Positions 16,336 through 21,131 of a stretch of DNA of 64,000 bases are shown one piece after another. Source of the DNA: an uncultured Lachnospiraceae bacterium (GTDB lineage Bacteria; Bacillota; Clostridia; Lachnospirales; Lachnospiraceae); NCBI GenBank assembly GCA_902781505.1, contig CACZJL010000002.1, positions 124,001 through 188,000 of the forward strand, given 5' to 3'. The translations under genes were made by a program, and so were the position numbers. The number at the start of each line of letters is the position of its first letter. The first letter of the stretch is position 1. The notes beneath the pieces are model-generated. The model was not told the DNA's origin. It saw nothing but the letters and a program-made list of their open reading frames with translations, and made no database searches.

Positions 16336-18444
16336 ATGCGACGCAGTAAATATATAAGAATGATTGTTACATCAGCGGTGATTGGCATTGCATGTGCCGG
16401 AATTGGCGCAGGTGCGTACTTTCATCAAAGTTCAGTAAGTGTCTCTGCTTCCACAAGCAAGGGCATGGTAAATGAAAAGGCGAAGTCACGTTCGGTTCGC
16501 GTGCGTACCGCAGCGGACACATCCGATGATTCCAATATCATCACAGGCCTTTATTACAACACAAATGTCGACATTTTAAGAGATGCCGGCTATCAGAATG
16601 GATATGACTGGTTTTATATCGGTTTCTACTACAATGGCGATTATCGCTATGGTTATATCGTAAAGGATTACGTGGATGTGTTATCAGACGGGGATTCCGG
16701 TGATTCGGATCCGGTTCCGACCTATGATTCTGATGAGGATTTTGAGAATGCGTTAAACGAACAGGGATTCCCTGAGAGTTACAAGTCTTACCTTCGTCAG
16801 ATTCATTCTGAGTACCCAAACTGGATTTTCCAGGCGGATCATACAGGCGTGGACTGGAATCAGGCAGTGTCAGAGGAGAATGTCCTCGGCCGAAGCCTGA
16901 TTTATAACTCCGCTATCAGTTCATGGAAATCCACAGACGATAATGCTTATAATTGGGAAACTTCAAGCTGGTACGGTCTTGATGGTTCCGGCTGGGTTCA
17001 GGCATCACCTGCACTTGTAAACTATGTAATGGATCCTAGAAACTATCTGGATTCTACACATGTTTTTGCATTTGAAGACTTAAGCTATCAGGATTCACAG
17101 AGTACGAGCGGGGTAAGAAATATTATCGCGGGAACATTCATGGCAAATTCCAATCATGATCTTTCCTACGATGGAACTCAGTATGATTATGCCTCTGCAT
17201 TAATGGCAGCAGGACGTATTTCCGGTGTTTCTCCATATCACCTCGCTTCCCGTATTCGTCAGGAAGTTGGCGTGAATGGATCCGGTTCCGTTTCAGGAAC
17301 AGAACCCGGTTATGAGGGATTATACAATTATTACAATCAGGGTGCCGTAACCGGAGGCGGCAGAAGTGCTATTCAGAACGGTCTGGTTTATGCATCAAAG
17401 GAAAATGAATTTGATCTCAGACCTTGGAATACGAGAATGCGTTCCATCATTGGCGGAGCTAAGAATATCGGTTCCAAGTACATCAACAAGGGACAGGATA
17501 CTCTTTACTATGAAAAGTTTGATTTAGAAGGCTTCTGGCATCAGTACATGACCAATATCATGGCGCCAAGAAGTGAATCTCAGACTTCATCAAGAGCTTA
17601 TTCAGATGAGATGAAGCAGGATACAGCATTTGTATTCACAATTCCTGTGTATGAAAATATGCCAGGTGAAGTACAGGCTCAGCCAACGGGTGATGGAAGT
17701 CCTAACTGTCTGCTTCGTAACATTACGGTAGATGACTTCAGTCTGACACCAACCTTTGATAAGTGGACAACAGAGTATGATGTTATCGTACCTTACGAGA
17801 CAACTTCTGTTTATGTTGATTACTTCCGTTATGATTACTCTTCAGAGTGCTCAGGTTACGGCGATATTGCATTAAATGTCGGTGAGAATGTTGTTCCTCT
17901 TACAGTAACAGCAGAAAATGGGGATTCTTTGGTTTACACGGTAACGATTGTTCGTAAGGATAATCCGGCATCTGCTCCTTCACCAGAATCAAATCAGAAT
18001 AATTCTAATTCAAATGAACAGAAGCCATATTCAGTACAGATTGGGCTGAATGTAAATAACTCATTCGTTTCAGGAATTGAAGTTGGAAGTTCTGCTTCTG
18101 ATGTGTTAGCTAAGATTCAGGTTACTAACGGACGTGCTGTCTATGAGGATAAAGACGGCAATGAAAAGTCCGGTGCTGCAGTTACAGGCGATAAGGTTGT
18201 ACTTTTTGATAACAACGGAAATCAGCAGGCAAGCTACGACGTTGTAATTTATGGAGATACGAATGGTGATGGCAAGCTGAGTATTCTTGATATTATTAAG
18301 ATTAAGAATGATATTCTGGATAAGGTGAAACTTGAAGGTGCATTTGCCGGGGCGGCTGATGTTAACCGTGACGGTAAAGCGAATATCTTAGATATTATTA
18401 AAATCAAGAACGATATTCAGGGAAAAGCATCAATAACCCAGTAA
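16336..18444 (+). CDS. Secreted putative glucosaminidase with SH3-like, cadherin-like and dockerin domains
   Basis: 702 residues. A signal peptide or membrane anchor (1-39) is followed by an SH3-like wall-binding domain (about 50-116). A region at about 135-425 resembles bacterial N-acetylglucosaminidases, with the HLASRIRQEVG motif placing a candidate catalytic glutamate at 310. A cadherin-like beta-sandwich follows (about 455-545), then an NS-rich linker. The C-terminus (about 640-698) is a two-repeat type I dockerin: DTNGDGKLSILD and DVNRDGKANILD calcium loops, each followed by IIKIKNDI. AAGGAG lies six bases before the ATG. The gene after it (12 bases on) encodes a cohesin-like membrane protein. 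I infer a wall hydrolase for cell separation or growth that is held at the surface by the dockerin. Confidence 0.82.
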   Translation: MRRSKYIRMIVTSAVIGIACAGIGAGAYFHQSSVSVSASTSKGMVNEKAKSRSVRVRTAADTSDDSNIITGLYYNTNVDILRDAGYQNGYDWFYIGFYYNGDYRYGYIVKDYVDVLSDGDSGDSDPVPTYDSDEDFENALNEQGFPESYKSYLRQIHSEYPNWIFQADHTGVDWNQAVSEENVLGRSLIYNSAISSWKSTDDNAYNWETSSWYGLDGSGWVQASPALVNYVMDPRNYLDSTHVFAFEDLSYQDSQSTSGVRNIIAGTFMANSNHDLSYDGTQYDYASALMAAGRISGVSPYHLASRIRQEVGVNGSGSVSGTEPGYEGLYNYYNQGAVTGGGRSAIQNGLVYASKENEFDLRPWNTRMRSIIGGAKNIGSKYINKGQDTLYYEKFDLEGFWHQYMTNIMAPRSESQTSSRAYSDEMKQDTAFVFTIPVYENMPGEVQAQPTGDGSPNCLLRNITVDDFSLTPTFDKWTTEYDVIVPYETTSVYVDYFRYDYSSECSGYGDIALNVGENVVPLTVTAENGDSLVYTVTIVRKDNPASAPSPESNQNNSNSNEQKPYSVQIGLNVNNSFVSGIEVGSSASDVLAKIQVTNGRAVYEDKDGNEKSGAAVTGDKVVLFDNNGNQQASYDVVIYGDTNGDGKLSILDIIKIKNDILDKVKLEGAFAGAADVNRDGKANILDIIKIKNDIQGKASITQ

Positions 18445-18456
18445 AGAGGATGAAAA

Positions 18457-20352
18457 ATGAGCTTTAAGAAGATTAGAGGATTTTTAGTTGCGTCAGTATT
18501 GGCAGTGTCCGTAATGGCATTTCCAATGGACGCACATGCAGCGGGAAGTGCTACGGTTTCGGTCGGTAGTGTCTCCGGTGAGGTAGGCGAATCGGTTACT
18601 GTTCCAATCAGCGTTTCCGGAAGTCAGGAAATTGCGGGTGTAGAACTTGTAATTAACGAGAGTTCAGGACTGACACTTGAAAGTGAAAAGACGATTGTCG
18701 ATTACGACGGTAACACGAGCTTTTCTGCGACATTTACAATTAATTCAACTGGTGCACATACTGTTTCTGTTTCAGCCGGTTCAACAATTTCAGATGAATC
18801 AGCTGATCCGATGGAGCTTTCTGTTTCAGCCGGCACGGTTACAGGCTTAGTTGCAGGTGGCGGCGATTCCGGAGACAGCGGTTCAGGCAGTGGCTCAGGC
18901 AGCGGCAGCGATTCGGGCATTGACTCAGGCAGTAAGGACACCGGTTCCGGAAGTGATTCCGGAAGCGACAGCAAGTCTGAGGACGGCAAGTTAAGCAGCA
19001 ATGCAAACCTTGGAAGTCTTGATGTTGGCAGTGGTTCTTTAAGCCCTGCATTCTCATCAGAAACTACAATTTACAGCGTATCTGTAGGTGCCGATGTAGA
19101 TCGTCTTGTTGTTTCAGCAACTCCGGCAGATGGCGATGCACAGGTTTCTGTTTCAAACACTAAGCTGGTGGATGGCGATAACAGTATTAACGTAACTGTA
19201 ACCGCTCCAAATGGTGCGCAGAAGGTTTATACCATCAATGTTACAAAGGGAGCACAGAAGACAACACAGGCTCCGACAGAACCGGCAGAAACTGTTTATG
19301 GTGAATACACAGCAACAGCCGCAACCGTCGAAGTTCTTGGCTTCCCGAACGGAGTTCAGATTCCTGATGGCTTTACACAAAGCAATGTAAAGATTGGTGA
19401 TGTAAGTGCACCTGGTCTTACAAACAGCAGCAACATTGTGCTTTTCTATGGCCGCGACAAGGCTCATAACAATGAAGGCTGGTATCGTTATGATTCAAGT
19501 GACGGCTCCGTTCAGTTGTTCGCAGGTGTCGGCCAGACAACAACAAAGGCAGCAGCTTCTACAGCTACTACCGAGGACAATGGCCTTTTCTCCGACATCT
19601 GGAAAGTAATCGCACTCATTCTTGGTATTGTAGCAGCTGTTTTACTGATTGGTTTAATCGTTCTTGCAGTCCTTTATGTAAAGGGTGGAAAGAATGACGA
19701 CGATGACAATGAGGATGACGATTTCGACGGATTCGGCACGAGTGGCGACAAGCTCGACGATGAGTTTGACGAAACAGACCCATTTGCCGGGGAAGACGAC
19801 GTACTTGCGGATCTCACACAGAAGCTTTCTGTAGAAGAAGCAAGAGCGGCAGTTGCTAAGCAGCTGACTAACAATGCAGTAAATAACCAGACAAAGGTGA
19901 CTCCTGCAGGACAGAAGCCATATGCAGCTGCAGGCGTTGAGAAGTATAATGCGGCAACCTATCAGTCCGGTGTGAATAATCGTCAGGCAGGCACTCAGAC
20001 TCGAACTGTTTCAGCTCCGCAGACACGTGCAAAGCAGCAGACTGTGAATCGCACGATTCAGCATGGACACCTCGTTTCGGATGAAACATTACTTGGAAAT
20101 AACATCTCCGAAATCATGCGTCAGGAAGAGGAAGAGAAGCGCGTGGCAAGAGAGGCTGAAAAGAGCATGAAGCGTGCTCAGATGCAGAAGCCTGCAGCAA
20201 GTCAGGCTCGCACATCCTCAGCGGCAACTGAGAGAAAGATTTACAGTCAGCCTAAGGCGCCAGTTAAACCACAGTTAGCAGACGACGATGACATCTTAGA
20301 TGTTGTGGATACAGAAACACGAAGCAATATCTTCAGAGGAAAGAGAAGATAA
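18457..20352 (+). CDS. Cohesin-like/cadherin-like surface protein with membrane anchor and cytoplasmic tail
   Basis: 631 residues. Signal peptide 1-28 (ends AHAAG). Residues 30-130 start VSVGSVSGEVGESVTVPISV and then IAGVELVIN, which resembles the opening strands of cohesin domains, though it is shorter than a full cohesin. A Gly/Ser/Asp-rich linker (about 133-178) leads to a cadherin-like domain (about 182-270). A membrane helix lies near 383-408 (VIALILGIVAAVLLIGLIVL). After it come a strongly acidic stretch (411-450) and a 180-residue charged cytoplasmic tail. With the dockerin gene just upstream, the simplest reading is a receptor for it. Cohesin assignment is by eye and uncertain; the domain order and topology are clear. 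Confidence 0.75.
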   Translation: MSFKKIRGFLVASVLAVSVMAFPMDAHAAGSATVSVGSVSGEVGESVTVPISVSGSQEIAGVELVINESSGLTLESEKTIVDYDGNTSFSATFTINSTGAHTVSVSAGSTISDESADPMELSVSAGTVTGLVAGGGDSGDSGSGSGSGSGSDSGIDSGSKDTGSGSDSGSDSKSEDGKLSSNANLGSLDVGSGSLSPAFSSETTIYSVSVGADVDRLVVSATPADGDAQVSVSNTKLVDGDNSINVTVTAPNGAQKVYTINVTKGAQKTTQAPTEPAETVYGEYTATAATVEVLGFPNGVQIPDGFTQSNVKIGDVSAPGLTNSSNIVLFYGRDKAHNNEGWYRYDSSDGSVQLFAGVGQTTTKAAASTATTEDNGLFSDIWKVIALILGIVAAVLLIGLIVLAVLYVKGGKNDDDDNEDDDFDGFGTSGDKLDDEFDETDPFAGEDDVLADLTQKLSVEEARAAVAKQLTNNAVNNQTKVTPAGQKPYAAAGVEKYNAATYQSGVNNRQAGTQTRTVSAPQTRAKQQTVNRTIQHGHLVSDETLLGNNISEIMRQEEEEKRVAREAEKSMKRAQMQKPAASQARTSSAATERKIYSQPKAPVKPQLADDDDILDVVDTETRSNIFRGKRR

Positions 20353-20360
20353 AACTGAAT

Positions 20361-21131
20361 ATGGCTAAGAGAAGAGAAGTTCCAGAGTACATTCATCAGG
20401 AAGATTTTCTCGTCGCTAAAGATAAGATTATCGGCAAAGCACACAATACCCAGGGTATCGGCACGCTGTCCGAAAAGACGGTTCACGCGGTTTTGAAAAA
20501 CTTCGTGGAGCCGGATTTGGACCAGCAGGAAGTCGCCCTGGATGGGTACTTTGCCGATATTTATCATAATGGAGAAGTGGTTGAGATTCAGACGCGGCAG
20601 TTTAACAAGCTTCGCGAGAAGCTCGCCGTGTTTTTAAATCACTATCCTGTGACAGTAATCTATCCGATTCCGTATTACAAATGGCTGTCCTGGATTGATG
20701 AAAAGAGTGGCGAAATGAGCGAGGCGAGACTGTCTCCGCGCCACATGAATGAATATGATGCGTTTTTTGAGCTTTACAAAATCAAGATGCATCTGAAGAA
20801 CCCGAACCTGCGAATCCACCTGTATCTGATGGATATGGAGGAATATAAGCTCCTCAACGGGTGGGATAAAACAAAGAAGCACGGCGCGTGGCGCTACGAC
20901 CGCATTCCACTTGGTATTCGGAAAATAGTAACGATCGATCAGCCGGAGGACTATCTGCAGTTCGTGCCGGTTGAGTTAGAAGGGCAGTGGACCAGTGCAG
21001 ATTTCGCCAAGGCGGCGAAGATTCCAAAGGCAAAGGCAACCAATGTCTTAGGACTACTTTACTACATGGGGGCCGTGCAGCGTGTCGGGAAGAGAGGAAA
21101 TTCCTATCTGTACGAGGTTGGAGACGAGTGA
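20361..21131 (+). CDS. Predicted PD-(D/E)XK-like protein with C-terminal winged helix
   Basis: 256 residues, not a family I can name. Near residues 38-80 the pattern is SEKTVHAVLK, then DGYFADIYHNGEVVEIQTR. This is a helix with a glutamate, a strand ending in aspartate, and a strand with ExQ, the order expected of a PD-(D/E)XK nuclease fold in which glutamine replaces the lysine. The last 50 residues (FAKAAKIPKAKATNVLGLL, then a YLYEV hairpin) look like a winged helix-turn-helix. The start is 8 bases after the previous stop, so it shares that operon, although the functional link is unclear. It could bind or cut nucleic acid. It has no signal peptide. Confidence 0.6.
   Translation: MAKRREVPEYIHQEDFLVAKDKIIGKAHNTQGIGTLSEKTVHAVLKNFVEPDLDQQEVALDGYFADIYHNGEVVEIQTRQFNKLREKLAVFLNHYPVTVIYPIPYYKWLSWIDEKSGEMSEARLSPRHMNEYDAFFELYKIKMHLKNPNLRIHLYLMDMEEYKLLNGWDKTKKHGAWRYDRIPLGIRKIVTIDQPEDYLQFVPVELEGQWTSADFAKAAKIPKAKATNVLGLLYYMGAVQRVGKRGNSYLYEVGDE

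What the first reader, a model, noticed from the sequence alone, without database searches (positions are those of the whole stretch)
16336..20352. Dockerin-tagged wall hydrolase paired with a cohesin-like membrane protein: candidate minimal surface docking system
Two adjacent genes, 12 bases apart, encode a putative glucosaminidase with a clear two-repeat dockerin at its C-terminus and a signal-peptide protein whose first domain resembles a cohesin and which is held by a membrane helix with a 220-residue cytoplasmic part. Both also share a cadherin-like domain. Cohesin-dockerin pairs are known from cellulosomes, where they hold plant-wall enzymes on scaffoldins. Here a single receptor and a single peptidoglycan-type hydrolase would make a one-to-one surface module, with a cytosolic tail that might sense or position the complex. 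The dockerin repeats are nearly identical in IIKIKNDI, allowing two binding modes.
Basis: partly seen in the sequence, partly recalled or inferred. Interest (0 to 1): 0.75.

Follow-up and report, generated by a model that had tools for sequence, protein, structure and literature searches.

The report
Dockerin-docked cell-wall glucosaminidase at membrane
A gut-type Lachnospiraceae genome uses its only dockerin and its only cohesin, the snap-fit parts known from cellulose-degrading complexes, in two adjacent genes that look built to hold a cell-wall-cutting enzyme at the membrane, and the same gene pair recurs in well over a hundred related genomes.

Summary
Window 16336-18444 encodes a secreted GH73-type N-acetylglucosaminidase ending in a two-repeat type I dockerin. 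Twelve bases on, 18457-20352 encodes a signal-peptide protein whose first domain is a cohesin by profile and by predicted fold (top PDB matches are type I cohesins), followed by a cadherin-like domain, one membrane helix and a ~220-residue cytosolic tail. These are the only dockerin and only cohesin found in the genome. The gene pair is conserved: 154 sampled loci, median spacing about 20 nt, across Lachnospiraceae and neighbours. The dockerins carry the symmetric recognition residues expected of dual-mode cohesin binding, and these co-diverge with the neighbouring cohesin. Best reading: a one-to-one docking module holding a wall glucosaminidase at the membrane, by analogy with staphylococcal SagB-SpdC. 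Against a purely dockerin-driven logic, 63 of the 154 pairs keep the cohesin partner although the enzyme lacks a dockerin; those enzymes have longer N-terminal regions. AlphaFold2 on tethered single chains folds both domains well but does not resolve docking. Binding is inferred, not shown. New variant of a known kind (non-cellulosomal cohesin-dockerin pairing). I found no prior description in the literature I could search.

The parts
16336..18444 (+). Gene 1: secreted GH73-type glucosaminidase with C-terminal dockerin (702 aa)
   Evidence: ORF; PDB autolysin matches; NCBIfam SagB sub-threshold
16336..16455 (+). Signal peptide / N-terminal hydrophobic segment (residues 1 to about 40)
   Evidence: Sequence; inferred
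16471..16686 (+). SH3-like domain (residues about 46-117)
   Evidence: Aligned in A1; SH3_3 recognised by Pfam in homologue L191, not in the window copy
16756..17670 (+). GH73-type catalytic region (residues 141-445), putative catalytic Glu310
   Evidence: E310 invariant in 19 of 19 aligned sequences
17719..17958 (+). Cadherin-like beta-sandwich domain (residues 462-541)
   Evidence: Pfam PF12733 E 1.9e-6
18022..18246 (+). Beta domain fused directly to the dockerin (residues 563-637), X-module-like in position
   Evidence: Alignment A1; AlphaFold2 strands, pLDDT above 90 for most of it
18250..18417 (+). Type I dockerin, two repeats (residues 639-694)
   Evidence: Pfam PF00404; only dockerin in the genome; symmetric recognition residues
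18445..18456 (+). 12-base intergenic spacer
   Evidence: median spacing 19.5 nt over 154 loci
18457..20352 (+). Gene 2: membrane-anchored cohesin protein (631 aa)
   Evidence: ORF
18541..18855 (+). Cohesin domain (residues 29-133)
   Evidence: Pfam 26.8 bits alone; Foldseek top hits type I cohesins; only cohesin in the genome
19039..19248 (+). Cadherin-like beta-sandwich domain (residues 195-264)
   Evidence: Pfam PF12733 E 9.9e-8
19609..19674 (+). Single transmembrane helix (about residues 385-406)
   Evidence: Hydropathy
19675..20349 (+). Cytosolic tail, about 220 residues, with acidic patches
   Evidence: Topology inferred from signal peptide plus one helix

Best explanation
The two genes make a one-to-one surface docking module. 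The glucosaminidase is exported, and its dockerin (with the beta domain fused to it) is gripped, calcium-dependently and probably in either of two orientations, by the cohesin of the neighbouring membrane protein. This tethers the enzyme just outside the membrane. There it would most plausibly cut glycan strands of new peptidoglycan, fixing strand length or freeing strands from the membrane, as SagB held by SpdC does in Staphylococcus aureus. The cytosolic tail would position the complex or couple it to an internal partner. Shown: the domains, the fold class of the cohesin, the exclusivity of the pair in its genome, conserved adjacency, and the dual-mode signature of the dockerins. Inferred: binding itself, its calcium dependence, the substrate, and the cellular role.
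For: Only dockerin and only cohesin in the genome by Pfam and by family profiles. Adjacency and strand kept in 154 loci, median gap 19.5 nt, 137 of 154 within 100 nt. Dockerin and cohesin co-occur over 299 family genomes (80 with both; odds ratio 10, Fisher P 8e-19, not corrected for kinship); 47 genomes have exactly one of each, and in 31 of these it is this adjacent pair. Foldseek: type I cohesins are the best matches, E 1.6e-7 for the window model and 2.7e-10 for homologue L191. In 82 dockerins with an adjacent cohesin, positions 10, 11, 17 and 18 agree between the two repeats of a protein 68-90% of the time against 17-34% in shuffles (z 11-15), while positions 4 and 8 do not; published specificity positions are 10, 11, 17, 18 and 22 (PMC5748583). 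These residues co-diverge with the neighbouring cohesin beyond the catalytic domain (partial r 0.185, p 0.0005); control positions do not once these are accounted for (r 0.032, p 0.20). SagB-SpdC precedent: PMC12272431.
Against: 63 of 154 pairs keep the cohesin partner although the enzyme has no dockerin, and several of those genomes have no Pfam dockerin at all, so the cohesin must do something else there. AlphaFold2 of tethered dockerin-cohesin chains folds both domains (pLDDT 93-94), but pTM of 0.59 and 0.60 does not indicate confident docking; no PAE or coordinates were returned. Among 40 disjoint sister pairs, control dockerin positions co-diverge with the cohesin as much as recognition positions (0.47 against 0.35), so the position specificity of the coevolution is not secure. 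Positions 13, 14, 15, 20, 21 and 23 are also symmetric between repeats.
Confidence: 0.7

Rival explanations
1. The cohesin-protein works with the glucosaminidase through other surfaces (for example cadherin-like to cadherin-like or cohesin to catalytic domain) or binds the wall itself; the dockerin is an accessory that many lineages dispensed with.
For: Cohesin partner and adjacency are kept in most members of the large dockerin-less clades of the GH73 tree (37-row and 13-row clades); 63 of 154 pairs lack a dockerin; the cadherin-like domain of the enzyme also co-diverges with the cohesin (partial r 0.146, p 0.0015); AlphaFold2 shows no confident docking.
Against: In dockerin-bearing lineages the recognition residues are kept symmetric within a protein while changing between species, which a vestigial dockerin would not do; dockerin-less enzymes differ consistently in having longer N-terminal regions (median 353 against 129 residues before the catalytic domain, P 5e-16), as if a different targeting mode had replaced it.
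Confidence: 0.18
2. The two genes are simply co-transcribed envelope genes with no physical contact.
For: No direct binding evidence; in about half of the loci the pair sits in a conserved housekeeping neighbourhood next to clpC, which could preserve the order for other reasons.
Against: The pair also stays together away from the clpC neighbourhood, as in the window; a genome's single dockerin and single cohesin lie side by side; cohesin-dockerin is a known binding pair.
Confidence: 0.07
3. The pair is a remnant or part of a cellulosome-like nutrient-degrading complex.
For: Some relatives carry many dockerins (15 of 115 dockerin-bearing genomes have five or more hits), and cohesin-dockerin systems for cellulose, starch and mucin are known (PMC12997984).
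Against: The window genome has no other dockerin or cohesin; the enzyme is a peptidoglycan-type glucosaminidase; the receptor has one cohesin and a membrane helix.
Confidence: 0.03

Closest known systems
Cellulosomes (type I cohesin-dockerin, e.g. Clostridium cellulolyticum)
   Same: Type I dockerin with symmetric repeats; cohesin fold closest to type I cohesins; a cohesin receptor at the surface
   Different: One cohesin, one dockerin, one enzyme; no scaffoldin, no plant-wall enzyme; wall hydrolase cargo; receptor is a single-pass membrane protein with a cytosolic tail
Clostridium perfringens single-cohesin / single-dockerin glycoside hydrolases (pairwise complexes)
   Same: Pairwise, non-scaffold use of single cohesin and dockerin modules (PMC12997984); cohesin-like structures 2jh2, 2w1n and 2vo8 are among the structural matches of the homologue model
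   Different: There both modules sit on secreted hydrolases, some of them toxins, acting on host glycans; here the cohesin is on a membrane anchor and the cargo is a peptidoglycan-type hydrolase
SagB-SpdC of Staphylococcus aureus
   Same: Glucosaminidase held and tuned by a membrane protein; acts on new glycan strands (PMC12272431); enzyme domain related to SagB and autolysins
   Different: SpdC is an integral membrane protein of the CAAX protease family with no cohesin; SagB has no dockerin (own knowledge); the window enzyme is far below the SagB model cut-off (34 against 425 bits)
Ruminococcus albus single surface cohesin
   Same: A single cohesin proposed to anchor separate dockerin enzymes at the cell surface (PMC6118326)
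   Different: There one cohesin serves many dockerin enzymes; here one cohesin sits next to one wall hydrolase. Ruminococcus relatives of this enzyme carry a dockerin but no adjacent cohesin

Membership tests
Type I dockerin (PF00404) | Profile match above curated cut-off with two calcium-loop/helix repeats | tested here: met
   36.5 bits against 22.9; D at loop positions 1 and 12 in both repeats
Type I dockerin (PF00404) | Two-fold symmetric recognition residues (dual binding mode) | tested here: met
   Window repeats share I10 L11 K17 N18; family-wide test z 11-15 at positions 10, 11, 17, 18
Cohesin (PF00963) | Profile match above cut-off | tested here: met
   26.8 bits for the domain alone against 24.1; 18.6 in the whole protein; 20 of 22 family domains match
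Cohesin (PF00963) | Cohesin jelly-roll fold | tested here: met
   AlphaFold2 models; type I cohesins top-ranked in PDB
Cohesin (PF00963) | Binds a dockerin | tested here: inconclusive
   Tethered AlphaFold2 pTM 0.59 and 0.60; coevolution supportive but mixed
Cellulosome | Scaffoldin with several cohesins and several dockerin enzymes | tested here: not met
   One cohesin and one dockerin in the genome
GH73 glucosaminidase | Homology to known GH73 enzymes with the catalytic Glu kept | tested here: met
   6fxo and 4pi7 matches spanning E310; E310 invariant in 19 aligned sequences
GH73 glucosaminidase | Activity on peptidoglycan | not testable with these tools
   Needs an enzyme assay
SagB (NF052642) | Score above NCBIfam cut-off | tested here: not met
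   34.2 bits against 425
SagB-SpdC peptidoglycan release complex | CAAX-protease-family integral membrane partner | tested here: not met
   Partner is a single-pass cohesin protein

The most novel reading that the evidence does not exclude
Cohesin-dockerin docking serves a housekeeping function, membrane-proximal trimming of new peptidoglycan, across much of the Lachnospiraceae, as a widespread counterpart of SagB-SpdC. The pair predates many dockerin losses, so cell-wall docking may be an older or more common use of the cohesin-dockerin pair in these bacteria than fibre degradation.
Probability: 0.33. Interest if true: 0.82.

Novelty: new variant of a known kind. Interest (0 to 1): 0.62.

Why it matters
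Cohesins and dockerins are read as marks of fibre-degrading complexes. [quoted passage not shown] This pair would explain many single dockerins in non-cellulolytic gut Firmicutes as parts of wall-growth machinery, give a directly testable tether for a peptidoglycan hydrolase, and add a diverse natural set of cohesin-dockerin pairs (about 90 loci with matched recognition residues) for study of binding specificity.

Tried and rejected
Considered and rejected: cohesin domain as an unrelated Ig fold (cohesins rank first; the first non-cohesin match is at E 6e-5); a second dockerin or cohesin elsewhere in the genome (the only further cohesin-profile match is at E 0.13); chance adjacency. The Dock-minus call for Roseburia inulinivorans L206 is not a clean absence: the reading frame breaks inside the dockerin in that draft record. 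Regular expressions for the catalytic Glu were faulty or too narrow; the alignment is used instead. Paper searches for dockerin plus peptidoglycan hydrolase or glucosaminidase gave no description of this pair.
Full report
OBSERVATION. The two ORFs stand as described: 16336-18444 (702 aa) and 18457-20352 (631 aa), same strand, 12 bases apart. Protein 1 carries a Dockerin_1 match at 639-694 (E 5.5e-9) and a Cadherin-like domain at 462-541; protein 2 a Cadherin-like domain at 195-264 and a weak Cohesin match at 33-103 (E 0.0023). Scanned alone, the cohesin region scores 26.8 bits, above the 24.1 cut-off, and 20 of 22 homologous domains match Cohesin. The catalytic part has no Pfam hit, but it matches S. 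aureus bifunctional autolysin and Autolysin E structures, aligned through the region of their 'ETG' motif, and matches the SagB model at E 1.5e-8, far below that model's cut-off. E310 is invariant in 19 aligned sequences. I call it GH73-type; activity is untested.

EXCLUSIVITY. The window's genome (1.89 Mb, about 99% complete) holds one dockerin and one cohesin by Pfam, and still only these with profiles built from this family (the next cohesin-profile match is at E 0.13). If this dockerin has a cohesin partner in its own cell, it is the adjacent gene's product, unless a partner lies in missing sequence.

CONSERVATION. In 299 genomes of the same family, relatives of protein 1 occur in 181, cohesins in 114 and dockerins in 115. 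Cohesin and dockerin co-occur (80 genomes with both, odds ratio 10, Fisher P 8e-19, not corrected for kinship). Forty-seven genomes have exactly one of each, and in 31 of these it is the adjacent glucosaminidase-cohesin pair. I fetched 100 loci around glucosaminidase hits and 80 more with organism names (Lachnospira, Roseburia, Agathobacter, Ruminococcus and many uncultured Lachnospiraceae). A glucosaminidase is followed on the same strand by a cohesin protein in 154 loci, 91 with and 63 without a dockerin, median gap 19.5 nt. Caveats: roughly ten loci were found by both routes, and up to about twenty of the first hundred were picked partly because a cohesin or dockerin hit lay on the contig. 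Dockerin-bearing relatives without an adjacent cohesin are mostly Ruminococcus/Oscillospiraceae in the named set.

FOLD. Because the two genes are in one frame, I modelled an artificial read-through (stops as Gly) of beta domain + dockerin + spacer + signal peptide + cohesin with homologues. Mean pLDDT was 93.4, pTM 0.59. Foldseek against the PDB puts type I cohesins first (6kgf E 1.6e-7, 2vn6, 4dh2). The same construct without the beta domain from homologue L191 gave pLDDT 93.9, pTM 0.60 and stronger cohesin matches (6kgf 2.7e-10, 2vn5, 1g1k, C. perfringens 2jh2). By my rough estimate from domain lengths, a docked pair should give a pTM near 0.75-0.8 and an undocked one 0.5-0.56. The values do not show confident docking and cannot exclude it. 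No PAE or coordinates were available.

DUAL-MODE SIGNATURE. Published specificity positions of dockerin repeats are 10, 11, 17, 18 and 22 (PMC5748583). In 82 distinct dockerins of this family with an adjacent cohesin, the two repeats of a protein agree at 10, 11, 17 and 18 in 76, 68, 90 and 88% against 17, 18, 30 and 34% when repeats are shuffled among proteins (z 11-15); position 22 is weaker (66 against 48%). Positions 4 and 8 show no excess. Positions 13-15, 20, 21 and 23 are also symmetric, so recent duplication or packing may contribute. Across proteins these residues change strongly. Residues kept alike within a protein but different between species are what selection by a co-evolving cohesin would give. 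Distances at these residues correlate with cohesin distances after removing catalytic-domain distance (partial r 0.185, p 0.0005) and also after removing the enzyme's cadherin-like domain; control positions do not (r 0.032, p 0.20). However, in 40 disjoint sister pairs the control positions do as well as the recognition positions (0.47 against 0.35), so I treat the coevolution evidence as supportive, not decisive.

DOCKERIN-LESS PAIRS. On a tree of 178 catalytic domains, dockerin presence needs 10 changes (5 forced by well-supported branches), and the cohesin partner persists in most members of the large dockerin-less clades. The unresolved root leaves 'ancient dockerin, several losses' likely but unproven. 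Dockerin-less enzymes have a median of 353 residues before the catalytic domain against 129 (P 5e-16); the long member scanned, L112, has four SH3_3 stretches. Their partner proteins have shorter tails (median 20 against 130 residues). One apparent loss (R. inulinivorans L206) is a broken reading frame in a draft record. The cohesin domain therefore either has a second binding mode or a second ligand in those lineages.

NEIGHBOURHOOD. In 82 of 154 loci a clpC gene lies downstream, often with genes I read as mcsA, mcsB and radA, and purine genes lie upstream in some (identities of these neighbours are from sequence reading). The window's own pair sits elsewhere, after prfC, rsmH and a MATE transporter (same basis). 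A conserved housekeeping setting argues for a core envelope role rather than nutrition.

MECHANISM. Most likely the exported enzyme is caught by its dockerin on the membrane-bound cohesin and so works close to the membrane on new glycan strands, like SagB under SpdC control (PMC12272431). The tethering step I put at about 0.7-0.8; the specific role in strand release or length at about 0.4. The cytosolic tail as positioning element is a guess; a recurrent acidic C-terminal motif (DDDFEFIDLD-like) in many tails (33 of 154 by a strict pattern, 1 other ORF) is the best hint of a cytosolic partner. The window's own tail ends differently.

NOVELTY. Known relatives are cellulosomes, amylosomes, proposed mucinolysomes and the pairwise C. 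perfringens hydrolases (PMC12997984), plus the single R. albus cohesin (PMC6118326). None of the papers I found pairs a peptidoglycan hydrolase with a membrane cohesin one-to-one (only open-licence papers were searchable). I file it as a new variant of a known kind.

Noticed in passing
Tails of partner proteins, e.g. L158, L163, L169, L100 (C-termini): Cytosolic tails of very different length and composition often end in an acidic-aromatic motif resembling DDDFEFIDLD; 33 of 154 match a strict pattern and only one other ORF in the fetched loci does.
   Followed up: partly
L103:4183-5076 (-): Directly downstream of a partner gene, a 297-aa protein with an N-terminal hydrophobic segment, a cadherin-like-looking stretch, a membrane helix and the same C-terminal motif (EQDDDFDFMDL) but no cohesin hit: a possible further member of the system.
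   Followed up: no
L161, L164, L166, L168-L170, L172 (C-termini of glucosaminidases): In one clade, dockerin-less enzymes end in a Gly/Ser/Pro linker followed by a short strand-like motif (GGSNVTIV-type); it could be a peptide ligand replacing the dockerin.
   Followed up: no
L080-L259 neighbourhoods: The pair lies upstream of clpC in 82 of 154 loci, but not in the window's genome, where it follows prfC, rsmH and a MATE transporter.
   Followed up: partly
L206 (Roseburia inulinivorans DSM 16841): The glucosaminidase reading frame breaks inside the dockerin, so the dockerin is missed in this draft record; sequencing error or real mutation not resolved.
   Followed up: partly
L195, L197, L204, L209, L210, L239: Ruminococcus/Oscillospiraceae-type relatives carry a dockerin on the same glucosaminidase but have no cohesin gene beside it; they may dock on a distant scaffoldin.
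   Followed up: no
window 20361-21131 (+): Gene starting 8 bases after the cohesin gene, 256 aa, only a sub-threshold TrmB-type match; may share the transcript, function unknown.
   Followed up: no
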